A DNA stretch of 64,000 nucleotides. Source: Meiothermus sp. Pnk-1 (GTDB lineage Bacteria > Deinococcota > Deinococci > Deinococcales > Thermaceae). Positions within the stretch are counted from its first letter, which is position 1; each line of letters opens with the position of its first letter. The notes beneath the pieces are model-generated. The model saw only the letters and a program-made list of their open reading frames with translations, ran no database searches and had not been told where the DNA came from. This document shows positions 26,880 to 45,911 of this stretch, piece after piece. The translations under genes and the position numbers were made by a program. The DNA lies in contig NZ_QKOB01000003.1 in the NCBI RefSeq assembly GCF_003226535.1, forward strand, positions 1-64,000, given 5' to 3'.

Positions 26880-26945
26880 CCGATCCCTCCCAAGTCTCGC
26901 GGCGAGGGGAGGCCCCAGGCGCGCCAAACTCCATGGCCGGGCGCC

Positions 26946-28286: not shown

Positions 28287-28288
28287 GG

Positions 28289-28840
28289 CTACAGATCGAA
28301 GAACACCGTCTCCCCCTCGCCCTGCAAGCGGATGTCCCAGCGGTACACCACGCCGTCGGGGGTCTGGCAGCGCTGGGCCAGCAAGGTGGAACGGCGCGCG
28401 GGCTCGAGGGCGGCAAAGATCGGGTCCTGGGTGTTGTCGTGGTCGGAGAAGTACAGCCGGGTGACGGCGTGGATCAGCATCCCCCGGGCGAAGACCCGCA
28501 CGTCGATGTAGGGCACCGGGCTGGGGGGAACCGGCCCCGGCTTGACGGTGCGGAACCAGAACCCCTCGCCCATCGTCCCCGAGCGGCCAAAACCCCTGAA
28601 GTGGGGGTCGGCCTGGGCGTGCTGGGGGTCGGCGGGGTGACGGAAGCGCCCTTGGGCGTCGGCCTGCCAGATCTCCACCAAGGCGTCGTCTATCGGCACC
28701 CCGTCCCCGTCCAGCACCCGGCCTTTCAGGGTGATCCGCTCCCCCAGGGTCTGCTCGTTCACCAGGATGTTGCCCCCTTCGCGCACCAGGGCGAAGGCGA
28801 AGAAGGGACCCACGGTTTGGCTGGGCGACTGCGGGCGCAT
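28289..28840 (-). CDS. pcaG: protocatechuate 3,4-dioxygenase alpha subunit
   Basis: This 183-residue protein has the intradiol dioxygenase beta-sandwich: SQTVGPFFAFALV at the start, LKGRVLDGDGVPIDDALVEIW, then GRFRHP and GFGRSGTMGEGFWFRTVKPG. It lacks the iron-binding tyrosine and histidine pair, which reside in the beta subunit, as expected for PcaG. With PcaH it forms the oxygenase that opens protocatechuate between its two hydroxyl groups. Its ATG overlaps the pcaH stop by one base (TGATG), so the two subunits are made together. The length is close to the usual 200 residues for the family. Confidence 0.92.
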   Translation of the reverse strand: MRPQSPSQTVGPFFAFALVREGGNILVNEQTLGERITLKGRVLDGDGVPIDDALVEIWQADAQGRFRHPADPQHAQADPHFRGFGRSGTMGEGFWFRTVKPGPVPPSPVPYIDVRVFARGMLIHAVTRLYFSDHDNTQDPIFAALEPARRSTLLAQRCQTPDGVVYRWDIRLQGEGETVFFDL

Positions 28841-29550
28841 CAGTGGCCTCCCTCCTCGAAGTACATCCGGTCGTAACCGGCGAGCACGATGTCGAAGCGG
28901 TAGCCCAGGGCCCACTCGGGGCGGGTGAGCTCGAGGTCGAAGCTCGAGATGAGGCGCTCGCGGGCTTTGACGTTGGGGATGCCTTGGTAGATGGGATCGT
29001 GCTCGAGCAAGGGGTCGCCGGGGAAGTACATCTGGGTGACCAACCGTTCGCTGAAGTTGCGCCCGATGAGGGAGAAGTGGATGTGGGCCGGCCTCCAGGC
29101 GTTGGGGTGGTTCCTCCAGGGGTAAGCGCCGGGCTTGATGGTGATGAAGCGATAGCAACCCCGTTCGTCGGTGAGGGTGCGGCCCGCGCCGACGAAGTTG
29201 GGGTCCAGAGGCGCATCGTGCTGGTCGTTTTTGTGGATGTACCGCCCGGCGGCGTTGGCCTGCCAGATCTCGATCAAGACCCCCGGCACCCCCCGCCCGT
29301 TCTCGTCGAGCACCCGACCGCTCACGATGATGCGCTCCCCCAAAGGTTCCCCGTTCTTGGCGGCGTTTTGGGTCAGGTCGTGGTCCAGGGGGCCGATATC
29401 CCCCTCGCCGTAGACGGGACCGGTGCGCTCCAGAAGCGAGGCCGGCAAGGGCACCAGGGGGTGGTGGGGGGCCCGGCGCACGGTGGCCACATAGGGGCTG
29501 TAGAGGTAGGGGGGCTGGATGCTCCAGTCCAGTACGCGGCTTTGGCTCAT
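28840..29550 (-). CDS. pcaH: protocatechuate 3,4-dioxygenase beta subunit (iron-binding)
   Basis: This 236-residue protein holds all four Fe(III) ligands with the spacing known from PcaH enzymes: Y104 (AGRYIHKNDQHD), Y143 (KPGAYPWRNHPN), H156 and H158 (RPAHIHFSLIG). The N-terminal part carries YLYSPYVATVRRAPHHPLVPLP and the core has GRVLDENGRGVPGVLIEIWQAN. It catalyses intradiol cleavage of protocatechuate to 3-carboxy-cis,cis-muconate with PcaG. The ATG at 29550 overlaps the pcaC stop (ATGA). All key residues are intact, so the enzyme should be active. Confidence 0.95.
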   Translation of the reverse strand: MSQSRVLDWSIQPPYLYSPYVATVRRAPHHPLVPLPASLLERTGPVYGEGDIGPLDHDLTQNAAKNGEPLGERIIVSGRVLDENGRGVPGVLIEIWQANAAGRYIHKNDQHDAPLDPNFVGAGRTLTDERGCYRFITIKPGAYPWRNHPNAWRPAHIHFSLIGRNFSERLVTQMYFPGDPLLEHDPIYQGIPNVKARERLISSFDLELTRPEWALGYRFDIVLAGYDRMYFEEGGH

Positions 29551-29918
29551 ACTTCCTCCTTGAAAACCTCCTTGGCGATGGCAAAGGCCCGGTTGGCCGC
29601 CGGTACCCCGGCATAAACCGCAACCTGCATCAGCACCTCGCGTACCTCTTCGGGGCGCACCCCGGTATTGGCGGTGGCCCGCAGGTGTAGGGCCAGCTCG
29701 TGTTCGTGGCCCAGGGCTGCCAGCAGGGCCAGGGTGAGCAGGTGGCGGGTTTTGCGCTCGAGCCCTTCCCGTCCCCAAACCTCTCCCCAGGCGTACTCGG
29801 TGATGAAGCGCTGAAAGTCGGCGTCAAAGGGCGTGGTGCGGGCCTGGGCCTGGGCCACGTACGCCGTCCCCAGCACCGCCCGGCGGTTGTTCAGCCCGCG
29901 TTCATATCTATCGTCCAC
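29547..29918 (-). CDS. pcaC: 4-carboxymuconolactone decarboxylase
   Basis: This 123-residue all-helical protein of the CMD family reads RYERGLNNRRAVLGTAYVAQA, FQRFITEYAWGEVWGREGL and RKTRHLLTLALLAALGHEHEL. It continues with HLRATANTGVRPEEVREVLMQVAVYAGVPAANRAF, given here in pieces of the classic PcaC pattern. It decarboxylates 4-carboxymuconolactone to 3-oxoadipate enol-lactone. The GTG start lies 11 bases inside the end of pcaD, and its stop overlaps the pcaH start. Here it is a separate gene, unlike the PcaL fusion of some Gram-positive bacteria. Confidence 0.93.
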   Translation of the reverse strand: MDDRYERGLNNRRAVLGTAYVAQAQARTTPFDADFQRFITEYAWGEVWGREGLERKTRHLLTLALLAALGHEHELALHLRATANTGVRPEEVREVLMQVAVYAGVPAANRAFAIAKEVFKEEV

Positions 29919-30696
29919 CGTGGGCCTCCAAAAAGGCGCGGATTTCGTTCAGGGTGGCCTCGGGTTGCTCGATGCAGGGCAGGTGGGCGGCTCCCTCGAT
30001 GAGCCGCAGCGGGGCCCCCAGCTCCTGGGCCAGCGCCTCCGAGAGGGCAGGCGGGGTGGAGGGGTCTTGGGCCCCGCACACTACCAGCGCCGGAGCCCGT
30101 ACCGCCTCCAGCCCCCCGCGCAGGTCGGCATCCCGCAAGGCCGCGCAGGTTCCGAGGTAGCCCTCGGTCGGGGTGCGCGCAAGCATGTGGTAGTAGCCCT
30201 GCGCGGCGGCGGGTTGCTCCCGGAAAAAAGTCGGGGTAAACCAGCGGGCGATGACCCCCTTGGCCACCTCGGCCAACGAGGTCTCCTCGATGGCCCGGAT
30301 GCGCCCGTCCCAGCTTTCTGCACTCCCGATGCGGGCCCCGGTGTCCATCAGCACCAGCGCACGGGTGCGCTCGGGATGGGTACGGGCGAAGTCGAGGGCG
30401 ATCATCCCCCCTACCGAGATGCCTACCAGGCTGACCTGCTCGAGGGCAAGGTGGTCGAGCAGGGCCTTTAGATCCCGGGTGTGGTCGGCCAGGGTGTAGG
30501 GTGGGGGTGGGGCCTCGGAGAGGCCGTGGCCGCGTTTGTCGTAACGCACCACCTGGAAACGGGAGGCGAGCCCTGCGGCCTGGGCGTCCCAGAGGCGCAG
30601 GTCGCTGCCCAAGGAGTTGATGAAGACCACCGGGGGACCTTCCCCCTCGAGCCGGTAGTGCAGGACAAGACCGTTTACCTTGGCAAAGCGCGTCAT
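29908..30696 (-). CDS. pcaD: 3-oxoadipate enol-lactonase
   Basis: This 262-residue alpha/beta hydrolase has oxyanion-side VVFINSLGSDLRLWD, the RYDKRGHGLSEAP block and nucleophile S94 in LVGISVGGMIALDFA. It also has acid D in CGAQDPSTPP and base H in GAAHLPCIEQPE. These motifs match PcaD/CatD enzymes, which hydrolyse the enol-lactone to 3-oxoadipate. It is the first structural gene of the pca operon, 9 bases after the IclR gene on the same strand. Other small hydrolases share the fold, but the surrounding pathway makes PcaD the clear choice. Confidence 0.9.
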   Translation of the reverse strand: MTRFAKVNGLVLHYRLEGEGPPVVFINSLGSDLRLWDAQAAGLASRFQVVRYDKRGHGLSEAPPPPYTLADHTRDLKALLDHLALEQVSLVGISVGGMIALDFARTHPERTRALVLMDTGARIGSAESWDGRIRAIEETSLAEVAKGVIARWFTPTFFREQPAAAQGYYHMLARTPTEGYLGTCAALRDADLRGGLEAVRAPALVVCGAQDPSTPPALSEALAQELGAPLRLIEGAAHLPCIEQPEATLNEIRAFLEAHGGR

Positions 30697-30705
30697 ACCC
30701 CTCCC

Positions 30706-31509
30706 TCAGATTCCCAACAGCGGCACCAGCGAGGCCGCGGCCTGGAGCAACACCGGCAGCGTGCGCTTCAAAAGCTCCTCCCGGCTCACCCGCCCGGCCT
30801 GCACCCCCACATTCATGGCCGCCAGCACCCGGCCCCGCGCGTTTTTCACCGGCACGGCCAACGAGCGCAGCCCCAGCTCGAGTTCCTGGTCTACCAGGGC
30901 ATAGCCTTGGCCGCGCACCCGCGCCAGCTCTTCGCGCAGGAGTTCGGGGTCGGTGAGGGTGTGGGGGGTCAGGGGGCGCAGGGGCGTGCGCTGTAGGTAG
31001 GCCTCCAGCTCTGCGGGCTCCAGGGCGGCCAGCAGCACCCGGCCCATGGAGGTGCAGTAAGCGGGCAGGCGGCTGCCCACCCCCAGCCCCACCGAGATGA
31101 CGCGGCGGGTGGCGGCGCGGGCAATGTAGACGATCTCCCCGCCGTCCAAGATGCTGGCCGAGCAGGACTCGTGAAGCTGGGCGCTCACTTCCTCCAGCAC
31201 CGGCTGGAGCAGGCGGGGCAGGGGGGTAGAGGAGAGGTAGGCATGGCCCAGGCTCAGGATTTTGGGGGTCAGCCAGAACAGTTTGCCGTCGGTGGCCACA
31301 TAGCCGAGGGTGTGCAGGGTCAAAAGCGAGCGCCTGGCGGTGGCCCGGCTGAGGCCGGTGAGGCGGGCCACTTCGCTGATGGTAAGGCGCTCGTGGCCCT
31401 CGTCGAAGCAGCGAATCACCGAGAGCCCCCTCGCCAGGGCCTCCACGAAAAAGCTCTCCTGTTCGTTGTGGGCCTCGGCTTCCAGCACCGCCTCGGGCAA
31501 GAGATTCAT
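30706..31509 (-). CDS. pcaR: IclR-family regulator of the pca operon (PcaR/PcaU-like)
   Basis: This protein of about 267 residues has an IclR winged helix (FVEALARGLSVIRCFDEGHERLTISEVARLTGLSRATARRSLL, seen as two helices). It also has the ligand domain with VGLGVGSRLPAYCTSMGRVLLAAL, YALVDQELELGLRSLAVPV and AMNVGVQAGRVS. This matches the PcaR/PcaU/PobR subgroup, which responds to aromatic acids such as 3-oxoadipate or protocatechuate. The ATG at 31509 is chosen because a promoter -10 box sits only 10 bases upstream, leaving a leader of about 4 bases. It is the first gene of the pca operon and probably controls it together with itself. Confidence 0.85.
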   Translation of the reverse strand: MNLLPEAVLEAEAHNEQESFFVEALARGLSVIRCFDEGHERLTISEVARLTGLSRATARRSLLTLHTLGYVATDGKLFWLTPKILSLGHAYLSSTPLPRLLQPVLEEVSAQLHESCSASILDGGEIVYIARAATRRVISVGLGVGSRLPAYCTSMGRVLLAALEPAELEAYLQRTPLRPLTPHTLTDPELLREELARVRGQGYALVDQELELGLRSLAVPVKNARGRVLAAMNVGVQAGRVSREELLKRTLPVLLQAAASLVPLLGI

Positions 31510-31519
31510 GATGGAAGGG

Positions 31520-31548
31520 ATTATAGCACGGGCTGTGCGTTCTGTGAA
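31520..31548 (-). promoter_or_regulatory. promoter of the pca operon
   Basis: On the minus strand TTCACA (31548-31543) and a perfect TATAAT (31525-31520) are 17 bases apart. Transcription would start near 31513, only about 4 bases before the IclR start codon, so that message is nearly leaderless. Confidence 0.75.
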
Positions 31549-31551
31549 CAT

Positions 31552-31578: not shown

Positions 31579-32367
31579 TTAGTTGCCGGATTGCCCCTTT
31601 TCCATCTCGCCCAGCCAGGCTTCGGTGGCCTGGGCCATAAGCGGTTTCAGCCCCAGCTCTTGCAGCATCGCCGCCGCGGCCGCCATCTCCTCCCGTCGGC
31701 GCCGGGCGTGGCGCAGGCTACCCTCCACCAACCGGTCAACGAGCGCGGCGTTGGCCTCCTCCAGGGTCTGGGCGATGTTCTGACGGGTCTCGGCCTCGAG
31801 GCCAAGCCGCCGGGCCGCCTCCAAAGCCTCCCCCACCGCCGCCGCCAGCCCTTTGAAGAAGATGCTGCGCAGGAGCTTGCGGGTGGCGGCGGCCCCCGGC
31901 GCTTCCCCTACCACTTCCACCACCGCGCCCAACGGCCCCAGCCGCTCGGCATAGGCCAAAGCCCCCGGCCCCGAGGCGAGCGCTGGGGTGCGCAGGCCCC
32001 TGCCCGGCACCGGGCTCATCAGGGCGATGTCGGCGAAAAGAGCCCCGGTGGGGGCTACCGCCTCGCAGAGGGCCCGCTTGAGCGCCGGGGCCGCGGTGTT
32101 GAGGTCGGCGTAGACCACCCCCGGCCCCAGCACCGGGGCCACCCGCTGGGCCACCTCGAGCGCCACCCGGGCCCAGTTCACGCTGAGGACAACCCCGGCC
32201 CCCCAGGCCGCCTCGGCCTCGCTGGAAGCCCGCCGGATCCCCGGCACGCCTTTTTCGGGAATGGGGTCGTAGCCCACCACCTCCGCCCCGGCCTGCAGGA
32301 GGTCTTGGGCGATGGCCGCTCCGGCCTCACCCAGGCCCAGCACGGCAATTGACAGGTTCTTGTCCAC
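31579..32367 (-). CDS. 6PGDH-like NAD(P)-dependent dehydrogenase (DUF1932)
   Basis: This protein of about 262 residues has a Rossmann fold with VLGLGEAGAAIAQDLLQAG. It contains VLSVNWARVALEVAQRVAP and VYADLNTAAPALKRALCEAV, the latter in place of the usual 'D.ST..P' substrate motif. An all-helical C-terminal domain follows with the lysine block ATRKLLRSIFFKGLAAAVGEAL. It belongs to the 3-hydroxyisobutyrate / 6-phosphogluconate dehydrogenase superfamily with a DUF1932 C terminus. The GTG at 32367 is supported by the fold start but has a weak ribosome site. It is the last gene of the ring-cleavage block, 13 bases after the tannase gene. A role oxidising or reducing a ring-cleavage intermediate is inference. 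Confidence 0.72.
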   Translation of the reverse strand: MDKNLSIAVLGLGEAGAAIAQDLLQAGAEVVGYDPIPEKGVPGIRRASSEAEAAWGAGVVLSVNWARVALEVAQRVAPVLGPGVVYADLNTAAPALKRALCEAVAPTGALFADIALMSPVPGRGLRTPALASGPGALAYAERLGPLGAVVEVVGEAPGAAATRKLLRSIFFKGLAAAVGEALEAARRLGLEAETRQNIAQTLEEANAALVDRLVEGSLRHARRRREEMAAAAAMLQELGLKPLMAQATEAWLGEMEKGQSGN

Positions 32368-32380
32368 AGAAGATCTCGTG

Positions 32381-34084
32381 TTAGTAAGGTGTGCAAGTAA
32401 AGTTGGCTGCGTCGTTGGCTTGTGCCTGAGTGGGATTGGCTGGGCCAGTGTATCTGGGGTAGGTACCGTACTCGCATAATGGGCGAGTACGCCCATTGGT
32501 TGCTGCAGTTGCAGAACTGGTGTTGCCGTCCACTGCAATAAGGTGCTCCGGTGCTTCCCCTCGCTCGACCCAGGCTTCCAGCGTTGATAGCCAATCGTGC
32601 CGAGCTGTGAAAATACCGCTGCCATGTCCCATCCCCGGAATCAGATAGAAGCGGGCAAATTTTCTGACCTCTGCCTGCCCCATGTCCGCCACCAGCTTGT
32701 TCCAATAAGCAATAGTGTTGTGGGGCGTGATGGAATCGTCAATGGTACCGTGAGTAAGAATCATCTTACCCCCCTTGGCAATAAACCGGCTGTAATCGGT
32801 GCTAACCGCATCCGCCCAGCTTGAAACTTGCTGAATGCGGCTCACCCATTGGCTTGGTTCAAAGGCTAAGGGGTCATAGTTCATGTCCCGGGTGATGAAC
32901 CCTTGAATGGCGCCCTTAGCCGGGAAGAGCTGGAACGCTGAGCCGTCAGGGGCAAAGGGAAACTTACTCAAGTCGGCGGTGTTGCTGCGTCCCAGATGGT
33001 TCTGGGTAAACGTTGCTCCCTCTAGGATAGGCCAACGGGGATAACTGGTACTGCCCCCAGCAAAAGCAAAGCCAAACTGTACGGGCGAAGCGATTTTCTC
33101 CACTGCCGCAAGCTGAGGATCAGAAAGACAAGTCTCCCCAGTGTCGGCCCCACCAGGGCAACGCAAGGCTGCTCTAATGCTTTCAGTGCTTACCTTGGCG
33201 TTACAGGCGCGCACATCGCTGATGATGCCATCTTCAAGGCCATCTAAACCATCACACTGTGCCCGCACATAAGCAACCAAGGTAGCAACCTTAGCTGGGT
33301 TCATCCACGCAGGACTAGGCACGCCCAGCTTGTTGCCGTAGATAGCCCTGGCCTGAGCCCACGCACCCAGCCACATGTTGATAACGTTGTAAGCTGGGTA
33401 GTGGGCAACTATGCCGTTGTAGTCGTCCGGATAGCGTTGGGCAGCGTCAAGGGCTTCATGGCCGCCTTGCGAACCACCTATAAAGTAGGTGTAGCGGGGC
33501 TCTTGGCGATATACCCGCCGAATAAGGAATTTGGCGACATCCAACGTCTTTTTAATCTGCCATTGGGCGAAATTCATCAGCTCTTCCTGATTTAAAGCAA
33601 AACTGGTATCAAAAGGTGGTTTCCCCTCGGAAGAGTGACCGGAGTCGCTGCCCAGGGTAACGTAACCACGGGCTAATGGAGTAGGGACGTTAGCCGGCGC
33701 ACCACTAAATGGATCCAATCCTGTCACCACCGTTCCGTTGGTGCCTCCACCCCCGTACTGCAATACCCGCTGATTCCACCTTTTGGGAAGGTTGACTTCA
33801 AAGCGAATGGGGGAGGCTGTGGGATCCACTGCCCAAATGTTGCCGGTGACCTTGCAGTAGCTACGTGGATAGCCTGCTATATCCGTATCGTTCACGTCAG
33901 TGGCCGCCAAAACCATCGCTCCACTTGTAGGCAACCCAATTGCGCTTATAGGTATGACCAAGCCTGCCAAGCTTGAGCAAGACCGCTGAGCTTCCACATT
34001 GGTGATTGGAGCCGACTGCGCTTGGGTTAGCGCGACCAGAGGTCCAACTACCCCCACAACCGTGAAGATTCCTACCCTCCTCAT
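32381..34084 (-). CDS. tannase/feruloyl-esterase family protein, likely horizontally acquired
   Basis: This 567-residue secreted protein has a signal peptide (about 1-23) and the tannase/FaeB alpha/beta hydrolase fold. Visible parts are VNLPKRWNQRVLQYGGGGTNG, the nucleophile S205 in FIGGSQGGHEALDAAQRYP and a calcium-type loop CDGLDGLEDGIISDVRAC. The acid is D449 in LTHGTIDDSITP and the base is H487 in IPGMGHGSG. The family splits esters of gallate, hydroxycinnamates or related phenolic acids. The Cys-Ser and His-Cys pairs of classical members are Gly-Ser and His-Gly here. Base composition is near 50% G+C in sampled lines against about 80% in neighbours. GGAGG lies just upstream of the ATG. 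Ester specificity cannot be read from sequence. Confidence 0.85.
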   Translation of the reverse strand: MRRVGIFTVVGVVGPLVALTQAQSAPITNVEAQRSCSSLAGLVIPISAIGLPTSGAMVLAATDVNDTDIAGYPRSYCKVTGNIWAVDPTASPIRFEVNLPKRWNQRVLQYGGGGTNGTVVTGLDPFSGAPANVPTPLARGYVTLGSDSGHSSEGKPPFDTSFALNQEELMNFAQWQIKKTLDVAKFLIRRVYRQEPRYTYFIGGSQGGHEALDAAQRYPDDYNGIVAHYPAYNVINMWLGAWAQARAIYGNKLGVPSPAWMNPAKVATLVAYVRAQCDGLDGLEDGIISDVRACNAKVSTESIRAALRCPGGADTGETCLSDPQLAAVEKIASPVQFGFAFAGGSTSYPRWPILEGATFTQNHLGRSNTADLSKFPFAPDGSAFQLFPAKGAIQGFITRDMNYDPLAFEPSQWVSRIQQVSSWADAVSTDYSRFIAKGGKMILTHGTIDDSITPHNTIAYWNKLVADMGQAEVRKFARFYLIPGMGHGSGIFTARHDWLSTLEAWVERGEAPEHLIAVDGNTSSATAATNGRTRPLCEYGTYPRYTGPANPTQAQANDAANFTCTPY

Positions 34085-34095
34085 AGACCTCCTCC

Positions 34096-34755
34096 CTACG
34101 TTTTTTCCCTTGGCACCTTAGACAGTTCACCTTCGACATGAGAGCGCAGGCCGTAGAGGTCAACGGAGAGCTCCCCCGCCTGGAAGCGCCCGCGCAGGCC
34201 CTCTTCCCGCTGGGCACGAGCCTGGGCGGCCTCGAGCACCTCCCTCGAGCGCTCCTTGGCCACCACCACTGCCCCGTCGGCGTCCAGCACCAGGATGTCG
34301 CCGGTACGGATAAGGGCCCCGCCCAGTTGCAAGGGAACCCCGATCTGCCCCAGCGATTTGCGCTCGGCCCCCTTAGCCCGCACGTACCGGGTCCAGATGG
34401 GCAGGCCCATCTGGGCCAGCTCCTCGGCGTCGCGCACCGCGGCGTCCACCAGCATCCCGGCGGCCCCCTGGGCTTTGGCCTGGGTGGCCAAAAGTTCCCC
34501 CACCAGCGCTACCGGGGCGGGCTCGGGCATGGCGAAGACCAGCACCTCGCCGGGCCGCACCGCGGCCATGGCCGCGTGGACCATCAGGTTGTCATTCTGG
34601 GCGCACAACACCGTCAGAACGGGCCCCGCCACCCGGCTGCCGGGCACGAGCGGCAAGAGGGGCAGGTCTACCAGCCCCTCCCGTCCCGAAGCCTCGTAGA
34701 CCGTGGCCACCCCCAGCCGGGCTAGGGTTTGCAGTTCGTCTTGGCTCAGGCTCAT
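34096..34755 (-). CDS. RraA-family aldolase (GalC/HMG-CHA aldolase-like)
   Basis: This 219-residue protein of the RraA/4-hydroxy-4-methyl-2-oxoglutarate aldolase family has LGVATVYEASGREGLV and GPVLTVLCAQNDNLMVHAAM. It has the metal/substrate motif GMLVDAAVRDAEELAQMGLPIW with the essential R-D pair, then LQLGGALIRTGDILVLDADGAVVV. Members split 4-carboxy-4-hydroxy-2-oxoadipate to pyruvate and oxaloacetate in gallate and protocatechuate meta-pathways. Its ATG overlaps the stop of the GalB-like gene (ATGA), so the hydratase and aldolase are produced together, exactly the two consecutive steps of that pathway. RraA-type RNase E inhibitors look similar but would not be expected here. Confidence 0.85.
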   Translation of the reverse strand: MSLSQDELQTLARLGVATVYEASGREGLVDLPLLPLVPGSRVAGPVLTVLCAQNDNLMVHAAMAAVRPGEVLVFAMPEPAPVALVGELLATQAKAQGAAGMLVDAAVRDAEELAQMGLPIWTRYVRAKGAERKSLGQIGVPLQLGGALIRTGDILVLDADGAVVVAKERSREVLEAAQARAQREEGLRGRFQAGELSVDLYGLRSHVEGELSKVPREKT

Positions 34756-35462
34756 AAGCTCCTCACCACCTGGGGCAGCGCGCGCTGGAAGGCCTCGGCG
34801 CGCTCGATGTCCTTGTGGCCGGCGATGCGGCGGGCGTGGTTGGCCCGGTGGGCGGCCCGCTCGCCGTAGTACTGGCGCAGATAACCCTGCGAGGCGAAGG
34901 CCTCCATAGCCTTTTGCTTTTTCTCCCAGACCGGGGTGATGTCCAGGAAGAGCGTGGGCACGAAGCCGCACAGCTCGGGTTGGTGGGGCTCAAAGAGCAA
35001 AAACTCGGGGGGCCGCACGGTGCGGAAGGCGCTGGCCACCCCGGCCCCGCTGGCGAGCTGGCGGGCTTTCTCCACCGCCTCGTAGGTCACCGGGTGGTCG
35101 GGGTTGAAGGGGTCCTTCTCGGGGTGGGTCAGGAGCAGGTCCGGGGCGGTCTCCACGATGATCTCGACCAGGCGCTCCAGAGCTCGCTCGTCCACCCGCA
35201 AGGGGTAGTCGCCCAGATCCAGGCACTCGAAGCTGGCCCCCAAAGCCTCGGCGGCCTGGGTGGCCTCGGCGTGGCGGATAGCCTTGACCCGCTCGAGGGT
35301 CTGCCCCGGCTCCTTCCACAGCTCTCCCGACTCCCCGCGCTCGCCGTAGCTCAGGGCCACCACCCGCGCCTGCCCCCCCTGGGCGCACACGCTGGCGATG
35401 GCCCCCCCAGCCCGCCAGACGAAGTCGGCGGCGTGGGCGCTGAAGACCAGCATCCGCTTCAT
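34752..35462 (-). CDS. galB: PIG-L family hydratase, GalB-like (4-oxalomesaconate hydratase)
   Basis: This 236-residue protein is of the PIG-L (LmbE) fold but carries SAHAADFVWRAGGAI instead of the deacetylase HPDD motif. This variant, with ALSYGERGESGELW, is what I know from GalB, the zinc hydratase that converts 4-oxalomesaconate to 4-carboxy-4-hydroxy-2-oxoadipate. Other conserved pieces are LLLTHPEKDPFNPDHPVTYEAV and GFVPTLFLDITPVW. It overlaps its upstream and downstream neighbours by ATGA, and the next gene encodes the matching aldolase. A sugar deacetylase is possible by fold but does not fit the motif or the context. Confidence 0.82.
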   Translation of the reverse strand: MKRMLVFSAHAADFVWRAGGAIASVCAQGGQARVVALSYGERGESGELWKEPGQTLERVKAIRHAEATQAAEALGASFECLDLGDYPLRVDERALERLVEIIVETAPDLLLTHPEKDPFNPDHPVTYEAVEKARQLASGAGVASAFRTVRPPEFLLFEPHQPELCGFVPTLFLDITPVWEKKQKAMEAFASQGYLRQYYGERAAHRANHARRIAGHKDIERAEAFQRALPQVVRSL

Positions 35463-36370
35463 GCCCGCCCTCCTTTGGCCAGCTTCACGGGGTTGGTCAC
35501 GGCCATCTGGCGCACCTCGGCTTCGTCAAAGCCCGCTTCCAAGAGCTTGTCGGCAAAGAGGGCCAGCCCGTCCTCTACGGGAGGGTTCTTGGGCTGGCCT
35601 AAGTCGGTGGAAAGAACGTTACGCTCCACCCCGGTAGCCCGGATGGCCTCAAACACCCGTTCCCAGGGCACCTTGCCGCTCCAGGAGGGCACCAGGCAGC
35701 GCTCGAGGTAGGCCCCCTGCTGGGCCAGGTAGCGCTGCTCGGGGATGGGCAGGGCCTGGGTGGGGTAGTCGGGGTGGGTGACCACGATGTAGCGCACCCC
35801 TTCCTCCAAGGCGGCCTCCACCACCTTCAGAATCTCCGCGCGGCCCAAGTGCCCGGTGGCCAGCACCAGGCCGTGCCGGGCCACTACCCCCAGCACCTGG
35901 CGCAGGGCCGGCACCACCCGCCCGTTGGCGTCCAGCGCCTCGATGGGATCGAGGGGTAGCCCGGCCTCTCGGAACTCCACTTGCAGCTTGGCCCACAGGG
36001 GCTTTTTCTCCGGGGGCAGGGCGTCGGCCTCCCGGGCTTCGTTGGCCGCGTCCACGGTGGGCAGCCAGACGATGCGGGCCCCCTCGCGGGCGGCGATCTC
36101 CACCGCCACCGGGTTCAGCCCTCCCACCCCGTGGTTCAGGGTCAGGCTGCCCAGTACCTCCACCTCCGGCACCACCCGCCGGGCCAAGAGGGCCCGCTCG
36201 GCGGTCGGGACGTAATGGGACTTGAGCACGAAGCCGGCCAGGCCCCGTTCGCGGAAGCGCTGGGCCAGCTCGAGGTCGTGGGTGTGGCGGGGGATCACGT
36301 CGGGTTCGATGTGCACATGCAGGTCGTAGGCGCCTTGCACCAGTTCGATGGCGCGTTCGCTGGGGGTCAT
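35459..36370 (-). CDS. DUF6282-type amidohydrolase-like protein, possible lactonase
   Basis: This protein of about 303 residues begins ELVQGAYDLHVHIEPD, a metal-binding HxH strand of the amidohydrolase/PHP type. It has further histidines in VLKSHYVPTAE, LATGHLGRAEI and VVTHPDYPTQALP, and an aspartate in NVLSTDLGQPKNPP. It matches what I know as DUF6282. By analogy with LigI, the amidohydrolase-fold lactonase that opens 2-pyrone-4,6-dicarboxylate to 4-oxalomesaconate, it could make the GalB substrate, but no direct evidence shows that. Its ATG overlaps the GntR gene stop, and GGAAGGAG lies upstream. Membership in the operon is clear, the reaction is not. Confidence 0.7.
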   Translation of the reverse strand: MTPSERAIELVQGAYDLHVHIEPDVIPRHTHDLELAQRFRERGLAGFVLKSHYVPTAERALLARRVVPEVEVLGSLTLNHGVGGLNPVAVEIAAREGARIVWLPTVDAANEAREADALPPEKKPLWAKLQVEFREAGLPLDPIEALDANGRVVPALRQVLGVVARHGLVLATGHLGRAEILKVVEAALEEGVRYIVVTHPDYPTQALPIPEQRYLAQQGAYLERCLVPSWSGKVPWERVFEAIRATGVERNVLSTDLGQPKNPPVEDGLALFADKLLEAGFDEAEVRQMAVTNPVKLAKGGRA

Positions 36371-37023
36371 AGGGTACTCCTTCCGATGCGTTTGAGGGCC
36401 GCGATGACGCCCCCCAGGTGGGCCTTCATGGCGGCTTCGGCCTCTTCGGGTTGGTGGGCGGCCACCGCGGCGATGATCCGGCGGTGCTCCTCCAAGGACT
36501 GCTGGGGGCGGCCCGGCACCAGGATGGTGTGGAACTGGTGCCGCACCCCCTGGGCCCGCAGCCCCTCGATGAGCCGGGCTGCGGTCTGGTGACCGGAGAT
36601 TTCCACCAAGGTGCGGTGGAGCAGGCTGTTGAGCTCGGACATGCCCCACAGGTCGCCCGCGCGGTGGCGCTCCTCCATCTGGCGGTGGATGGCCCACAGG
36701 GCCTCGGCCTGCTCGGGGGTGGCCTTGCGGGCCGCGTGGTGGGCGGCCAGGGCCTCCAGCGCGGCGCGGGCCTCTAAGATCTCCACCGCCTCGGCCTCGC
36801 CGATGGTGCGCACCCGCGCCCCCCGGAAGGGCTCGCTCTCTACCAGACCCTCCTGCTCGAGCCGGGCCAAGGCGGTGCGGATGGCCGCCCGCCCCACCCC
36901 GAAGCGCTCGGAGAGCTCCTTCTCTACTAAGCGCTGCCCCGGCAGCAGCTCCCCGGCCAGAATGGCCCGCCGCACCAGAAGGTAGGCGCTCTGGGTCTCG
37001 GTGGACTTCTCCGTCACCGCCAT
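36367..37023 (-). CDS. GntR-family regulator (FCD type) of the aromatic genes
   Basis: This 218-residue protein has a GntR winged helix (AYLLVRRAILAGELLPGQRLVEKELSERFGVGRAAIRTALARL, in the usual order) and a helical FCD sensor domain (ILEARAALEALAAHHAARKATPEQ, LNSLLHRTLVEISGH, HQFHTILVPGRPQQSLEEH). FCD proteins bind carboxylic acids, often with a metal held by Asp/His residues. It is the second gene of the ring-cleavage operon. VanR/FadR-like GntR proteins favour TTGT-N2-ACAA palindromes, and exactly such sites lie over the -35 boxes at 38046 and 45902. It is therefore the likely repressor of both operons, relieved by an aromatic acid or ring-cleavage product. Confidence 0.87.
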   Translation of the reverse strand: MAVTEKSTETQSAYLLVRRAILAGELLPGQRLVEKELSERFGVGRAAIRTALARLEQEGLVESEPFRGARVRTIGEAEAVEILEARAALEALAAHHAARKATPEQAEALWAIHRQMEERHRAGDLWGMSELNSLLHRTLVEISGHQTAARLIEGLRAQGVRHQFHTILVPGRPQQSLEEHRRIIAAVAAHQPEEAEAAMKAHLGGVIAALKRIGRSTL

Positions 37024-37024
37024 C

Positions 37025-38005
37025 TCAGGCCTCCTGGGCCTCTACCGGGGGGGTGCCGTAGGTGTGGAAGGTGGGCACCGTCTGCAGCCCCCAGGCCTGG
37101 CCCCGCTTGCGCTCCTCCTCGTTCCAAACGATGGGCTTCCAGTCCGGGGCCAGGAGCAACCGGGCCCCCGGGCAGGCCACCTCGAAGCGGTTGCCCCCCG
37201 GCTCGTAGACGTAGAGGAAGAAGGTCTGCTGGATGGCGTGCTTGTGCGGCCCGGTCTCGATCTTGACCCCGTGCTCCAAGCAGATATCTGCTGCTCTTAG
37301 CACCTCCTCGCGGCTGTCCACCGCGTAGGTGCAGTGGTGAAAGCGGCCCCTGGCCCCCAGGTGGTCTTTGGTGATGGCTACGTCGTAGGTCTTGTTGTTG
37401 CTGGTGAGCCAGACTCCCTGCTCGTCCCCCCCGCTGAAGATGATCTGCTCGGTGACTTTCATCCCCAGGTTGCCCTCCATGAACAGCCGCATGGCCCGCA
37501 CGTCCGCGGCCAGCAGGTTGATGTGGTCGAGCCGGCGCAGGTTGGCCCCTTTGCCAGGGAAGCGGGAAGCTTGGTTCTTGAGGGCGGGCCGGGTGGCCTC
37601 GGTGGGGGTGTACCAGGTGGTCTCGTAGTAGAGCTCCACAAGGTGCCCGTCCGGGGTGTGGAAGCGGTAGGCCGGGCCGTGGCCGCGCTCCTCCACCCAG
37701 CCCTGGCCCAGCCCGCTCTGCTCCAGGACCCGCACCCGCCGGGCGAGGGCCTCGGGGCTCCTGACCCGGAAGGCGAAGTGTCCCAGGCCGGGCTGGGGGG
37801 CGGCGGTGAGCTTGAGGGTGTGGTGCTCATAGTCGTCCCAGCCGCGCAGGTAAACCGAGTTGGGGGTGGATTCGCTCACGCTCAGGCCCATCACCTCGGT
37901 GAAGAAGTGGAGGCTTTGCTCGAGCTTCGGGGTGAGGAGCTCGAGGTGGGCCAGGTGGGCCAGGTCGCAGTAGGGCCAGACCCCTTCAGTGCTTACTTCG
38001 GACAT
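37025..38005 (-). CDS. type I (VOC) extradiol dioxygenase, catechol 2,3-dioxygenase-like
   Basis: This protein of about 326 residues has two VOC domains. Fe(II) ligands are visible as H161 (RLDHINLLAADV), H224 (GRFHHCTYAVDS) and E275 (GGNRFEVACPG), with spacing close to XylE-type enzymes. The N-terminal domain reads LAHLELLTPKLEQSLHFFTEVMGL. It should open a catechol ring next to the diol. Substrate is uncertain: catechol itself, or a carboxylated catechol such as protocatechuate or gallate if it feeds the GalB/RraA genes that follow. The ATG at 38005 has GGAGG 5 bases upstream. It is the first gene of the operon running down to 31579 and starts just after a promoter with an operator. Confidence 0.87.
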   Translation of the reverse strand: MSEVSTEGVWPYCDLAHLAHLELLTPKLEQSLHFFTEVMGLSVSESTPNSVYLRGWDDYEHHTLKLTAAPQPGLGHFAFRVRSPEALARRVRVLEQSGLGQGWVEERGHGPAYRFHTPDGHLVELYYETTWYTPTEATRPALKNQASRFPGKGANLRRLDHINLLAADVRAMRLFMEGNLGMKVTEQIIFSGGDEQGVWLTSNNKTYDVAITKDHLGARGRFHHCTYAVDSREEVLRAADICLEHGVKIETGPHKHAIQQTFFLYVYEPGGNRFEVACPGARLLLAPDWKPIVWNEEERKRGQAWGLQTVPTFHTYGTPPVEAQEA

Positions 38006-38022
38006 GGGAACCTCCTGCACGC

Positions 38023-38055
38023 ATGCTAGCCATAGTTGACCACATTGTCAACAAT
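38023..38055 (-). promoter_or_regulatory. promoter and GntR operator of the ring-cleavage operon
   Basis: On the minus strand TTGACA (38051-38046) and TAGCAT (38028-38023) are 17 bases apart. The -35 box lies within a perfect 12-base palindrome, ATTGTTGACAAT (38055-38044), with ATTGT/ACAAT arms. The same palindrome occurs at 45900. Binding there would block RNA polymerase. Confidence 0.75.
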
Positions 38056-38089: not shown

Positions 38090-39292
38090 CTAGGCCGGGA
38101 CCTCCCCTCCCACCCACCCGGCGTAGCGGCCGCTGGTGTAGAGGCCCACGTAGTTCTCGGCCAGAAAACGCCGCAGGTGGGGGCTTTCGGCTAGGTGGCG
38201 GAGCTGGGCGGTGCGCAGGCCGTCGTCGAAGGGATCGGCGGGGGTGTGGAGCAGGGTGGTCATGAAGTAAGAGAAGAGCTCGGCCTGCCAGACGTGGCGC
38301 AGCGCGTCCTGGGTGTAGCCCAGCAGGAAGCCCTCCTCGCCCCGCCGGTAGTAGGCCAGCAGGGCCCGGTACAACAGCACCGCGTCGGAGAGGGCCAGGT
38401 TCATGCCCTTGGCCCCGGTGGGCGGCACCACGTGGGCCGCGTCGCCCATCAGGAAGAAGCGGCCGTGCTGCATGGGCTCCACCACCAAAGAGCGCAAGGG
38501 GGTGAGGCTCTTTTCCAACAGGGGCCCCGGGCGCACCTCGGCCACCCCCGCAAGCCGCTCGCTGAGCTCGGCCCAGATGCGCTCCTCGGGCCAGTCCTCG
38601 AGCCGCTCCTCCACCCCCACTTGCAGGTAGTTCCTCGAGCGGGTGGGCGAGCGCATGCTGAAAAGGGCAAAGCCACGGGGATGGCTGGCGTAGATGAGCT
38701 CCTCGGCAGCGGGTAGGGCCTCGGCCAGAATGCCCAGCCAGGCGAAGGGGTAGTTTTTCTGGTACAGCCGGGCTCCGGGTATCTGGGCCCGCAGCCGGCT
38801 GTGCGAGCCATCGGCCCCCACCACAAACTCGCAGGCGAGCTGCTCGGTAGCCCCCTCGGGGGTTCGGTAGAGCAGGCGCAGGCCCTCCGGGGCGGCCTCC
38901 AGGCCCAACACCTCGTGCTCGAAGCGAATCTCCCCGCCCTGGGCCAGGTAGAGCCGGATCATGTCCTGCACCACAAACTGCTGGCCATAGACCCAGATGC
39001 TCTTCCCCTCGGTGAGGCTAGGGAAGTCCAGGTGGTGCAGGGCCCCGTCGAAGGCCAGGTAGACCCCGCGGTGCTCTAAGCCCTGCTCGAGCATCCGCTC
39101 CCCCAGCCCGGCCCGGCGCAGAATCTCCCTGCTGCCCCACTCCAGCACCCCGGCGCGGATGCGGTGGGGGCTGGTCTCCAGGTACTCGCGGCTTCTGGCC
39201 TCGAGCACCACCGCCTCAATCCCCTCGCGGTGCAGCAGGTGGGCCAGCAAGAGCCCCGCCGGCCCCGCCCCCACGATGCCCACCTTAACCAT
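38090..39292 (-). CDS. pobA: 4-hydroxybenzoate 3-monooxygenase
   Basis: This 400-residue flavoprotein has an N-terminal FAD motif VGIVGAGPAGLLLAHLLHREG, the class A NADPH/FAD DG motif CEFVVGADGSHSRLR and the C-terminal FAD-binding FFLMGDAAHVVPPTGAKGMNLALSDA. The SPHRIRAGVLEWGSREIL and RNYLQVGVEERLEDW regions match PobA rather than phenol or salicylate hydroxylases. It hydroxylates 4-hydroxybenzoate to protocatechuate, feeding the pca genes at 25548-30696. It is the last gene of the operon that starts with livK at 45845; its ATG overlaps the stop of the 84-residue protein gene. Confidence 0.9.
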   Translation of the reverse strand: MVKVGIVGAGPAGLLLAHLLHREGIEAVVLEARSREYLETSPHRIRAGVLEWGSREILRRAGLGERMLEQGLEHRGVYLAFDGALHHLDFPSLTEGKSIWVYGQQFVVQDMIRLYLAQGGEIRFEHEVLGLEAAPEGLRLLYRTPEGATEQLACEFVVGADGSHSRLRAQIPGARLYQKNYPFAWLGILAEALPAAEELIYASHPRGFALFSMRSPTRSRNYLQVGVEERLEDWPEERIWAELSERLAGVAEVRPGPLLEKSLTPLRSLVVEPMQHGRFFLMGDAAHVVPPTGAKGMNLALSDAVLLYRALLAYYRRGEEGFLLGYTQDALRHVWQAELFSYFMTTLLHTPADPFDDGLRTAQLRHLAESPHLRRFLAENYVGLYTSGRYAGWVGGEVPA

Positions 39293-39539
39293 GCTCCCCT
39301 CCGAAGAGGATCAGGTCGGAAAGCGGCCGGGCTTCCACGCCCTCCTCGTCGGGGCCGAAGGGGGTGGAAAGCAGCCGCGAGAAGGTCTCCACCGGCTGCC
39401 AGGTGAGGGCCTCGAGCTCCAGGGGGTCGAGCTCCACGCGGTAGCCCAGGCGCGGGGAGGTAATGCATAGCCGCTCCCCGTTGCGGGTGGCGATCTTCTC
39501 CACCGTCACGGTAGTGAACTCGTTGGTCAGGGTGAGCAT
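39285..39539 (-). CDS. small protein between Rieske dioxygenase and pobA
   Basis: This 84-residue protein has no signal peptide or membrane segment. It reads TNEFTTVTVEKIATRNGERLC, then ITSPRLGYRVELDPLELEALTW, and ends in an acidic tail (ARPLSDLILFGGEHG). It overlaps pobA by 8 bases and follows the beta-subunit gene by 10, so it is a true operon member. I do not recognise the family with certainty; short proteins of this kind occur next to Rieske dioxygenase subunits in other bacteria. It could be an assembly or accessory factor, but this is a guess. Confidence 0.65.
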   Translation of the reverse strand: MLTLTNEFTTVTVEKIATRNGERLCITSPRLGYRVELDPLELEALTWQPVETFSRLLSTPFGPDEEGVEARPLSDLILFGGEHG

Positions 39540-39549
39540 GGGTACCTCC

Positions 39550-40062
39550 CTAGAAGAAAAAGGCCAGGTTGTGGGTGGGCAGGGTGGCGCTGTCCAGGAT
39601 CACCGTGCGGCCGGCCAGCCGCCAGCCCCCCTCCTCCTGCCGCCAGACGTCGCGGCGCTCGGCCGAGAGAAAGGTGTGGTCGGGCCGGTCCCAGCGGCTC
39701 CTGAAGATGAGCAGGTTGGAGCGCACCTCGGTCTCCTCGCCCTTGGGGGTGGGCCTGGGCTCGCCGATGCGCACGTTGGTCACGAAGTGGCGCAGGCGGG
39801 AAGGGGGGTCTTCGGCCCAGGCGAAGCCGGTCTCGAGGCGGGCCACGCGCATCTCGAGGGAGGTGTAGTCTTCGTCCAGGTGGTACATCCCCCCCATCAC
39901 CCCGCTCACCCCGCCCTCCGGGCCCCGCTCCTTGGTGACCCGCACCGGCACCCGGTAGCGCACGTCCTCGGCTAGCAGGGTCAGCCACTCCCGGTAGCGC
40001 CCCTCATCGAGCAGCTCGGCTTCCTTGTACAGGCAGTTGAGCAAGGCTTGCACACGGTCCAT
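39550..40062 (-). CDS. aromatic-ring-hydroxylating dioxygenase beta subunit
   Basis: This 170-residue protein has the cone-shaped SnoaL/NTF2-like fold of dioxygenase small subunits: LLNCLYKEAELLDEGRYREWLTLLAEDVRYRVPVRV, then EDYTSLEMRVARLETGFAWAED, RLRHFVTNVRI and AERRDVWRQEEGGWRLAGRTVILDS, quoted in parts of the usual pattern. It stabilises the alpha hexamer and does not bind metal. It starts 8 bases after the alpha-subunit gene. A GAGGTGG lies directly before the ATG at 40062. The pair is complete, but no ferredoxin or reductase is encoded nearby. Confidence 0.88.
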   Translation of the reverse strand: MDRVQALLNCLYKEAELLDEGRYREWLTLLAEDVRYRVPVRVTKERGPEGGVSGVMGGMYHLDEDYTSLEMRVARLETGFAWAEDPPSRLRHFVTNVRIGEPRPTPKGEETEVRSNLLIFRSRWDRPDHTFLSAERRDVWRQEEGGWRLAGRTVILDSATLPTHNLAFFF

Positions 40063-40070: not shown

Positions 40071-41405
40071 TCAAGAGAGGAGCATCTCCAGGTAACGGCG
40101 GTGAAAGTTGCGCATGTTGGCGTCGGTGAAGTTGAGCCCGTAGGCCACCCCCGGCCCCGGCCAGTTGGGGTCGGGCTCGAGCTCGAGCCCCATGCGGTAG
40201 TTGAGGCGCAGCTCCCGGCCCTGGGCGGTGGCGGCGTTGTGGGCCACGTGGCTCCAGATCTCGGTGTCGTCCTGCTCGAAGGTGCCCGAGGAGCCGAAAA
40301 AGCGCAGGTAGGAGTGCCGGGTCTTCTCCTTGAACCACTCCGGGGCGTCTTTTTCCACCAAGGCCCAGGAGAAAATCTCGATGCGGCCCGGTCCCAAGGG
40401 GTGCCAGACCCGGAAGGTGAGCATCGGCACGGTGCCTTGGTACTTGTGGTCGGGCTTGCGGATGGGGTTGTGGAAGGAGAAGTTGGGGAAGAGCGTGACC
40501 AGCAGGATGCGGGTCTCGCGGGCGGTCTCGAACTGCTCACGGGTGGGGTAGGAGGTGCGGGCCCGCTCGAGCATCTCCTCCGGGTAGCCCCAGAAGGGGG
40601 GCAGCTTGGCCCCGGGCGGGGCCCCCACCACCATGCTGCCGTGACCCTTGCCGGGGATGTGAATCTGTTCGCCGTACATGGCGTACTTGGCGTCCTTGGG
40701 GGCGATGCCCAGCTCGATGAGCGAGCGGTGGGTCATGAGGGTGTGGTAGCTGTCGCTCAGGAAGGTCTCCAGCGCCAGCTTCCAGTCGGTGTGGACCACC
40801 CAGCGCTGGGGCGGACCCAGCACCTCGAGGCCCGCCGGGCTGCGCTTGGTCACGAGCTCCAAGTACCAGCGGATCTCCCCCAGCCACTCCTCGAGGCCCG
40901 GGGCCTCGGGGTCGAGGTTGCCGAAGATCATCCCGTCGAAGACCTCGAGGCGAGGAATGGGGCATAACCCCCACTCCGCCTTGTTGAAGCCGGGCCCAAA
41001 GGCCTCGCGCTCGGCCGGCACCCCGATCAGCCGGCCGTCGTTGCGGTAGGTCCAGCCGTGGAAGGGGCAGCGGAAGTGGCTGGCGTTGCCCAGCTCGGCC
41101 CGGCAGACCCGCATCCCCCGGTGGCGGCACATGTCGAGCAAGGCCCGCACCACCCCGTCCTCGCCCCGCACCACGATGTAGGGGTTGTTCAGCACGTAGC
41201 GCAGCACGTAATCGCCGGGGTTGGGGATCTCCGACTCGTGGGCCAGATACACCCAGGAGCGGCTGAAGATCTTCTCCTTTTCCAGCTCAAAAAGCTCGGG
41301 GTCGTTGAAGATCCAGGCCGGCACCAGCCCGTCCTCTATTCCCTCCTGCAGCTCCTCCAGCATCCGGCCAAGCCGAGAGGAGACCCCACCTTTGACCCTC
41401 GCCAT
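40071..41405 (-). CDS. Rieske aromatic-ring-hydroxylating dioxygenase alpha subunit
   Basis: This protein of about 444 residues has the Rieske [2Fe-2S] site with C93 and H95 (LDMCRHRGMRV) and C113 and H116 (FRCPFHGWTYRNDGRLIG). The mononuclear iron site has D218, H221 and H226 (ETFLSDSYHTLMTHR). All key residues are present, so it should add two oxygen atoms to an aromatic ring. The substrate is unknown; a benzoate-type or hydroxybenzoate-type acid would fit the operon. The ATG at 41405 follows GAGGTGA by 5 bases and is 13 bases from the transporter ATPase gene. An electron supply must come from elsewhere in the genome. Confidence 0.9.
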   Translation of the reverse strand: MARVKGGVSSRLGRMLEELQEGIEDGLVPAWIFNDPELFELEKEKIFSRSWVYLAHESEIPNPGDYVLRYVLNNPYIVVRGEDGVVRALLDMCRHRGMRVCRAELGNASHFRCPFHGWTYRNDGRLIGVPAEREAFGPGFNKAEWGLCPIPRLEVFDGMIFGNLDPEAPGLEEWLGEIRWYLELVTKRSPAGLEVLGPPQRWVVHTDWKLALETFLSDSYHTLMTHRSLIELGIAPKDAKYAMYGEQIHIPGKGHGSMVVGAPPGAKLPPFWGYPEEMLERARTSYPTREQFETARETRILLVTLFPNFSFHNPIRKPDHKYQGTVPMLTFRVWHPLGPGRIEIFSWALVEKDAPEWFKEKTRHSYLRFFGSSGTFEQDDTEIWSHVAHNAATAQGRELRLNYRMGLELEPDPNWPGPGVAYGLNFTDANMRNFHRRYLEMLLS

Positions 41406-44655: not shown

Positions 44656-44657
44656 GG

Positions 44658-45845: not shown

Positions 45846-45877
45846 GGTTAACCTCCTGGCTGTGGTTTGTGAGCAGG

Positions 45878-45911
45878 AGTCTACCAAATAGTCGGCTAGA
45901 TTGTCAACAAT
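45878..45911 (-). promoter_or_regulatory. promoter and GntR operator of the importer-hydroxylase operon
   Basis: On the minus strand TTGACA (45907-45902) and TAGACT (45883-45878) are 18 bases apart. The -35 box lies inside the palindrome ATTGTTGACAAT (45911-45900), identical in all 12 bases to the site at 38044. A leader of about 30 bases with GGAGGTTAACC follows. Confidence 0.75.

What the first reader, a model, noticed from the sequence alone, without database searches (positions are those of the whole stretch)
31579..38055. Compact tannin/gallate-type degradation module with a VOC dioxygenase in place of the usual ring-cleaving enzyme
One operon carries a tannase-family esterase, a type I extradiol dioxygenase, a DUF6282 amidohydrolase-like protein, a GalB-like hydratase, an RraA aldolase, a 6PGDH-like dehydrogenase and a GntR regulator. 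GalB and the RraA aldolase are the last two steps of the gallate and protocatechuate 4,5-cleavage route, giving pyruvate and oxaloacetate (established). The LigAB/GalA-type dioxygenase and the GalD tautomerase of known pathways are not encoded here. The VOC enzyme may open the ring, the DUF6282 protein may act as the lactonase, and the dehydrogenase may act on the semialdehyde. This would be a new combination in a heat-loving lineage (inference).
Basis: partly seen in the sequence, partly recalled or inferred. Interest (0 to 1): 0.8.

Follow-up and report, generated by a model that had tools for sequence, protein, structure and literature searches.

The report
Gallate operon with swapped ring-opening enzyme
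A heat-loving bacterium carries a gene set that most likely breaks down gallate, a building block of tannins and lignin, but opens the ring with an enzyme unrelated to the known gallate enzyme and uses an uncharacterised protein family for the next step; the same swap recurs in bacteria of several phyla, so it looks like an overlooked route for degrading plant aromatics.

Summary
The genes reported are all present. The conserved unit is VOC dioxygenase–GntR–DUF6282–GalB–CHA aldolase–DUF1932 dehydrogenase. The tannase between the last two is a low-GC insertion missing from all relatives. GalB and the aldolase match their characterised namesakes, so the pathway must pass through 4-oxalomesaconate. 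No LigB-type dioxygenase and no GalD homologue was found in the genome.

Best evidence: in Pantoea the VOC gene occupies the galA position of a cluster whose other genes are 50-85% identical to a Klebsiella cluster that has ordinary galA. Agrobacterium, Rhizobium and Thioclava show galB–VOC–galC–galD. In Armatimonadota a LigM/DesA-type O-demethylase directly follows the VOC gene. Gal-linked VOCs form one clade in which the catalytic His of type I extradiol dioxygenases is Tyr in 18 of 18 sequences, against His in 8 of 8 catechol/HPCD-type sequences.

Gallate is therefore the likeliest substrate. No biochemistry was done.

The parts
37025..38005 (-). VOC (type I) extradiol dioxygenase, 326 aa; proposed gallate dioxygenase. 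Metal ligands His161, His224, Glu275; Tyr207 where other type I enzymes have a catalytic His
   Evidence: positional swap with galA
37385..37387 (-). codon of Tyr207 (HPCD His200 position)
   Evidence: Tyr in 18 of 18 clade members, His in 8 of 8 catechol/HPCD-type rows
36367..37023 (-). GntR-family (FCD) regulator of the module
35459..36370 (-). DUF6282, amidohydrolase-fold protein (invariant His18, His20, Lys50, His174, His199, Asp256); proposed 4-oxalomesaconate tautomerase in place of GalD
   Evidence: pLDDT 94.4; fold; slot exchange
34752..35462 (-). GalB, 4-oxalomesaconate hydratase (PIG-L fold)
   Evidence: 5cgz E 5.7e-60 over full length
34096..34755 (-). GalC/LigK-type 4-carboxy-4-hydroxy-2-oxoadipate aldolase (RraA fold)
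   Evidence: NF006731, 204.6 bits against cut-off 179; 3noj E 1.3e-48
32381..34084 (-). tannase/feruloyl-esterase-family esterase with a likely signal peptide, recent insertion into the operon
   Evidence: GC; absent in relatives; MHETase and feruloyl esterases are nearest solved structures
31579..32367 (-). DUF1932 / 6PGDH-like NAD(P)-dependent dehydrogenase, conserved accessory of gal clusters, role unknown
38044..38055 (-). operator-like element ATTGTTGACAAT in the VOC promoter
   Evidence: conserved upstream of VOC across Thermaceae
45900..45911 (-). second exact copy of ATTGTTGACAAT, promoter of the transporter-Rieske-PobA operon
38090..39292 (-). PobA-type 4-hydroxybenzoate 3-monooxygenase with the PHBH active-site residues conserved
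39285..39539 (-). conserved 84-aa protein of unknown function
   Evidence: (no Pfam match)
39550..40062 (-). Rieske oxygenase beta subunit
40071..41405 (-). Rieske oxygenase alpha subunit
41419..45887 (-). branched-chain-amino-acid-type ABC importer (fused ATPases, two permeases, binding protein), likely for aromatic acids
25548..31551 (-). IclR regulator and beta-ketoadipate genes (pcaD, pcaC, pcaH, pcaG, pcaB, CoA transferase): a separate protocatechuate route

Best explanation
The module is a gallate catabolic operon assembled with non-orthologous enzymes. Gallate enters from tannin ester hydrolysis or from O-demethylated syringyl lignin units. The VOC enzyme opens the ring to 4-oxalomesaconate; this is the ordinary 2,3-cleavage of a type I catechol dioxygenase applied to a 3-hydroxy-5-carboxycatechol. 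DUF6282 shifts the double bond (the step done by GalD/LigU elsewhere), GalB adds water, and the RraA-fold aldolase splits the product into pyruvate and oxaloacetate. GntR controls the operon through ATTGTTGACAAT, shared with the upstream transporter-Rieske-PobA operon. DUF1932 is a conserved accessory dehydrogenase of unknown role. Shown by sequence: gene content, conservation, families of GalB and the aldolase, absence of LigB and PrpF families from the genome, positional exchange of VOC and GalA. Inferred: substrate, DUF6282 activity, regulation.
For: GalB and CHA aldolase fix 4-oxalomesaconate as the intermediate. Pantoea piersonii: MFS-VOC / LysR / galB-galC-galD-DUF1932; Klebsiella pneumoniae: MFS-galA / LysR / galB-galC-galD-DUF1932, shared genes 50-85% identical, no VOC. 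Agrobacterium, Rhizobium, Thioclava: galB-VOC-galC-galD; the A. tumefaciens cluster ends in a tannase. Virgisporangium has DUF6282 next to a tannase. Armatimonadota: the gene after VOC scores above the cut-off for vanillate/3-O-methylgallate demethylase LigM. VOCs linked to galB/galC (in two cases to the aldolase with a PF04909 amidohydrolase) form one clade (98/97) with Tyr207 in 18/18. Tautomerase slot: GalD, DUF6282 or CHMI (PF02962) alternate, and none of the VOC-bearing loci examined has two of them. Own genome lacks LigB and PrpF families. The VOC-bearing Meiothermus genomes and this one also have pcaGH, so protocatechuate has its own route.
Against: No enzyme activity is known for any member of the VOC clade; NCBIfam calls the window protein catechol 2,3-dioxygenase above its cut-off (330 against 320 bits). 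The shared operator ties the module to PobA, whose product is protocatechuate, not gallate. DUF1932 has no place in the gallate scheme. Eight actinobacterial loci without VOC carry DUF6282 together with a PrpF-family gene, so DUF6282 is not simply a GalD substitute there. Solirubrobacterales VOCs in similar clusters keep His at position 207. The Klebsiella galA match is in pieces.
Confidence: 0.72

Rival explanations
1. A protocatechuate 4,5-cleavage pathway: VOC cleaves protocatechuate made by PobA to 4-carboxy-2-hydroxymuconate semialdehyde, DUF1932 oxidises it to the pyrone dicarboxylate, DUF6282 is the lactonase, then GalB and the aldolase.
For: PobA with an intact PHBH active site is upstream and shares the operator. 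DUF6282 has an amidohydrolase fold, and the lactonase LigI (4d8l) is among the structural matches. Five enzymes map onto five steps.
Against: The VOC clusters of Pantoea, Agrobacterium, Rhizobium, Thioclava and G274 have no lactonase gene but do have a tautomerase. DUF1932 also sits in a galA-containing cluster. Canonical protocatechuate 4,5 clusters in Azospirillum and Nitratireductor carry LigC- and LigI-type genes and no DUF1932. The VOC-bearing Meiothermus genomes and this one already have pcaGH. Type I enzymes usually cleave 4-substituted catechols on the proximal side, which would not lead to 4-oxalomesaconate (established chemistry).
Confidence: 0.15
2. The VOC enzyme is an ordinary catechol 2,3-dioxygenase that happens to lie next to a gal lower module.
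For: Scores above the NCBIfam catechol 2,3-dioxygenase cut-off.
Against: It lies outside the clade of Thermus catechol enzymes that sit beside a protocatechuate-decarboxylase-type gene or dmpG genes. The Pantoea member scores below that cut-off while the T. oshimai catechol paralogue is above it. Linkage to galB/galC is kept across several phyla, and no dmpG was found in the Meiothermus-type module loci.
Confidence: 0.06
3. The true substrate is a close relative of gallate, such as 3-O-methylgallate, with a methyl ester of 4-oxalomesaconate as product and one of the unassigned proteins as esterase.
For: LigM/DesA-type demethylase next to VOC in Armatimonadota and related GCV_T proteins beside the module in Thermomicrobiota; Roseomonas has VOC next to an alpha/beta hydrolase, with a Rieske alpha subunit and a VanB-type reductase nearby.
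Against: Pantoea and Agrobacterium clusters have no intracellular esterase in the operon and match galA clusters one for one.
Confidence: 0.07

Closest known systems
P. putida KT2440-type gallate operon (galTAPRBCD)
   Same: Same hydratase (GalB) and aldolase (GalC) families; same intermediate expected; the Pantoea version matches a galA-containing cluster gene by gene apart from the dioxygenase
   Different: GalA (LigB/LigA fusion, type II) replaced by a VOC enzyme; GalD (PrpF fold) replaced by DUF6282 in Thermaceae; GntR instead of LysR; extra DUF1932
Protocatechuate 4,5-cleavage pathway (ligABCIJKU / pmd)
   Same: Lower steps from 4-oxalomesaconate
   Different: No LigB, no GalD/LigU in the genome; no LigI-type gene in the module; separate pca ortho operon alongside
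Thermus oshimai JL-2 lignin-aromatic gene cluster on pTHEOS01 (Chakraborty et al. 2021, doi 10.1128/AEM.01589-20, known here only through a citing paper, PMC10815724)
   Same: Carries the same six genes and the same transporter-Rieske-PobA set
   Different: That plasmid also has a second VOC beside a carboxymuconolactone-decarboxylase-family gene and a dmpG-type lower pathway; in the window protocatechuate has pcaGH instead. The cited paper could not be read, so whether it assigns the module is unknown
Type I extradiol dioxygenases (XylE, HPCD, 3lm4/7q2a; PDB 9wgj)
   Same: Fold, iron ligands, HPCD Tyr257 and His248 equivalents
   Different: Tyr instead of the catalytic His200; HPCD Arg243 and Arg293 (carboxylate binding) not conserved; clade-specific Arg299, Gln303, Ala304, His314. 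9wgj (labelled catechol 1,2-dioxygenase, about half identical) carries the same residues

Membership tests
Gallate degradation pathway (gal) | GalB-type 4-oxalomesaconate hydratase | tested here: met
Gallate degradation pathway (gal) | GalC/LigK CHA aldolase | tested here: met
Gallate degradation pathway (gal) | GalA gallate dioxygenase of the LigB superfamily | tested here: not met
   PF02900 absent from the genome; VOC enzyme at the galA position in relatives
Gallate degradation pathway (gal) | GalD 4-oxalomesaconate tautomerase (PrpF fold) | tested here: not met
   PF04303 absent; DUF6282 present instead
Gallate degradation pathway (gal) | conversion of gallate to pyruvate and oxaloacetate | not testable with these tools
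   needs enzyme assays
Protocatechuate 4,5-cleavage pathway | LigAB dioxygenase | tested here: not met
Protocatechuate 4,5-cleavage pathway | LigC dehydrogenase and LigI lactonase in the cluster | tested here: not met
   no PF04909 or Gfo/Idh gene in the module; present in canonical clusters
Type I extradiol dioxygenase (VOC) | 2-His-1-carboxylate iron ligands | tested here: met
   His161, His224, Glu275
Type I extradiol dioxygenase (VOC) | second-sphere catalytic His (HPCD His200) | tested here: not met
   Tyr207
Catechol 2,3-dioxygenase equivalog TIGR03211 | score above curated cut-off | tested here: met
   330.4 against 320.2 bits; the Pantoea clade member is below it
Amidohydrolase superfamily (DUF6282) | TIM barrel with HxH and further His/Asp metal ligands | tested here: met
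   model pLDDT 94.4, fold matches, invariant His18, His20, His174, His199, Asp256

The most novel reading that the evidence does not exclude
A widespread, apparently undescribed clade of VOC-fold gallate dioxygenases, with Tyr in place of the otherwise conserved catalytic His, has replaced GalA in gal operons of several phyla, and DUF6282 is a new, amidohydrolase-fold family of 4-oxalomesaconate tautomerases.
Probability: 0.6. Interest if true: 0.72.

Novelty: new variant of a known kind. Interest (0 to 1): 0.64.

Why it matters
If right, it gives a function to two large groups of misnamed or unnamed genes (VOC proteins called 'catechol 2,3-dioxygenase' and DUF6282), explains how tannin- and syringyl-lignin-using bacteria without galA can degrade gallate, and supplies a heat-stable gallate dioxygenase. 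A type I extradiol enzyme with Tyr instead of the acid-base His would test directly what that residue does.

Tried and rejected
Catechol 2,3-dioxygenase taken at face value: rejected because of the separate clade, the gal linkage and the catechol paralogues in Thermus. DUF1932 as a semialdehyde dehydrogenase specific to VOC clusters: considered seriously, dropped when a Klebsiella galA cluster was found to end in the same gene. Tannase as an original module member: rejected on composition and absence in relatives. LigB-type genes in the actinobacterial DUF6282 genomes: present in 12 of 27 but with no steady link.
Full report
OBSERVATION. The genes named in the finding are all there, on the minus strand. 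From 5' to 3' the operon is VOC dioxygenase (37025-38005), GntR (36367-37023), DUF6282 (35459-36370), GalB (34752-35462), RraA-fold aldolase (34096-34755), tannase (32381-34084), DUF1932 dehydrogenase (31579-32367). Upstream on the same strand lies a transporter-Rieske oxygenase-84-aa protein-PobA operon (38090-45887), downstream an IclR-pca beta-ketoadipate operon (25548-31551).

WHAT IS CONSERVED. Ten of 41 genomes of the same genus, family and order (own included) carry DUF6282. In the nine relatives fetched, the order VOC-GntR-DUF6282-GalB-RraA-DUF1932 recurs (one locus is cut by the contig end; in L019 the VOC and DUF1932 genes are damaged), and the tannase is absent at this place in every one. 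The tannase has GC 55% and GC3 57% against about 67-72% and 85-92% for its neighbours: a recent insertion. Its nearest solved relatives are MHETase and feruloyl esterases. The Thermus oshimai JL-2 plasmid has the same six genes with an aldehyde dehydrogenase and an importer divergent from them. In a survey of 111 Deinococcota genomes, 21 had a VOC at E 1e-75 or better: 17 an intact one at 73% identity or more, one a damaged copy, three only a catechol-type paralogue at about 45%.

THE FIXED POINTS. GalB has one PDB match under E 1e-5, the 4-oxalomesaconate hydratase of P. putida. The aldolase matches the CHA aldolase 3noj and passes the NCBIfam model NF006731. So the pathway passes 4-oxalomesaconate (established biochemistry of those families). 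The genome has no LigB-family and no PrpF/GalD-family gene.

WHY GALLATE. A search of plasmids with the VOC protein found it, at 56-66% identity, in gal clusters of other phyla. Agrobacterium tumefaciens (walnut isolate), A. vitis, Rhizobium and Thioclava have galB-VOC-galC-galD with DUF1932 and LysR nearby; the A. tumefaciens cluster ends with a tannase. Pantoea piersonii has MFS-VOC, LysR, galB-galC-galD-DUF1932. A Klebsiella pneumoniae locus has the same genes at 50-85% identity but with ordinary galA at the place of VOC (its galA match is split into pieces in that assembly). Pseudomonas oryzihabitans has the classical galA arrangement. In Armatimonadota the gene about 30 bases after VOC passes the LigM (vanillate/3-O-methylgallate O-demethylase) cut-off, and related GCV_T proteins sit beside the module in Thermomicrobiota. 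Chemically, the usual 2,3-cleavage of type I enzymes on gallate gives 4-oxalomesaconate directly; on protocatechuate the usual proximal cleavage would not (inference from established regiochemistry).

THE DIOXYGENASE. It is a C23O-like type I enzyme by family score with the usual iron ligands. In a 31-sequence tree the gal-linked VOCs of Thermaceae, G274, Armatimonadota, Thermomicrobiota, Alpha/Gammaproteobacteria and Nonomuraea group together (18 sequences, support 98/97), apart from the Thermus catechol paralogues. All 18 have Tyr at the position of HPCD His200, which is His in the eight catechol- and HPCD-type sequences compared; they share His17, Tyr59, Arg232, Arg237, Arg299, Gln303, Ala304 and His314. 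HPCD's carboxylate-binding Arg243 and Arg293 are not kept. Solirubrobacterales VOCs from DUF6282-GalB-aldolase clusters branch separately and keep His, so Tyr is not essential to the module. PDB entry 9wgj, named catechol 1,2-dioxygenase by its depositors, shows the clade residues in alignment.

DUF6282. The AlphaFold model is confident (pLDDT 94.4) and has an amidohydrolase-type barrel; matches include the lactonase LigI but also dipeptidases and deacetylases, so the fold does not decide the reaction. Context does better: VOC-bearing clusters carry one of GalD (Proteobacteria, Nonomuraea), DUF6282 (Thermaceae, Thermomicrobiota, Armatimonadota, Solirubrobacterales) or a CHMI-family tautomerase (G274), and none examined carried two. 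Most DUF6282 loci were fetched by DUF6282 itself, so the absence of GalD there is the informative half. Methylobacterium and Roseomonas loci have neither GalD nor DUF6282 but a PF04909-type amidohydrolase. Against a simple equivalence, eight actinobacterial loci without VOC have DUF6282 and a PrpF-family gene together, six of them with a PF04909 amidohydrolase.

DUF1932. Present in most VOC clusters but also in the Klebsiella galA cluster, and absent from the Azospirillum and Nitratireductor protocatechuate 4,5 clusters and from the P. oryzihabitans gal cluster. Its role in gallate use is open.

REGULATION. ATTGTTGACAAT occurs twice without mismatch in the window, before VOC and before the transporter-Rieske-PobA operon (four sites counting one mismatch; 0.24 expected), and both sites recur in several Meiothermus genomes; T. 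oshimai has the transporter site exactly and the VOC site with one mismatch. This suggests one GntR regulon for lignin-type aromatic acids (inference). PobA keeps the PHBH active-site residues, so it should make protocatechuate, which the VOC-bearing Meiothermus genomes and the window's genome can pass to PcaGH.

VERDICT. Prior description cannot be ruled out because two key papers could not be read.

Noticed in passing
window 39285-39539: An 84-aa protein without Pfam match, conserved (about 78-90% identity) between the Rieske beta subunit and PobA genes in Meiothermus and in Thermus oshimai.
   Followed up: partly
window 39550-41405: Rieske oxygenase alpha/beta pair with no ferredoxin, reductase or dihydrodiol dehydrogenase in the operon; substrate unknown.
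   Followed up: no
L157 (G000:C3:60001-76000), 7362-8423: A second VOC dioxygenase of the same genome (about 40% identical) in a cluster with an SDR-like protein, an FAD-linked-oxidase-like protein, a cyclase-like protein and a PF04909 amidohydrolase.
   Followed up: partly
L158 (G000:C3:438000-452000), 6499-7467: A third type I dioxygenase that groups with HpaD, in what looks like a homoprotocatechuate cluster.
   Followed up: partly
L044, L082, L098, L103, L104: Actinobacterial clusters with RraA aldolase, PrpF, DUF1932, a PF04909 amidohydrolase, DUF6282 and an NMT1-type ABC importer but no ring-opening enzyme nearby; the imported substrate is unknown.
   Followed up: partly
L022 and L023: Haloarchaeal plasmids with DUF6282 beside a large FAD/Fe-S oxidase and an amidohydrolase (with MmgE/PrpD in L023): a different use of DUF6282.
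   Followed up: no
L019 / G024:C1:927867-928592: In one Thermus genome the gal-type VOC gene has an internal stop and DUF1932 is truncated, while the catechol-type paralogue is intact.
   Followed up: no
L106:156-1535 (T. oshimai plasmid): A carboxymuconolactone-decarboxylase-family gene directly before a catechol-type C23O, with a dmpG lower pathway nearby; fits the reported protocatechuate decarboxylase route.
   Followed up: partly
PDB 9wgj: Labelled catechol 1,2-dioxygenase (an intradiol activity) but its sequence is a type I extradiol enzyme of the clade described here; name probably wrong.
   Followed up: partly
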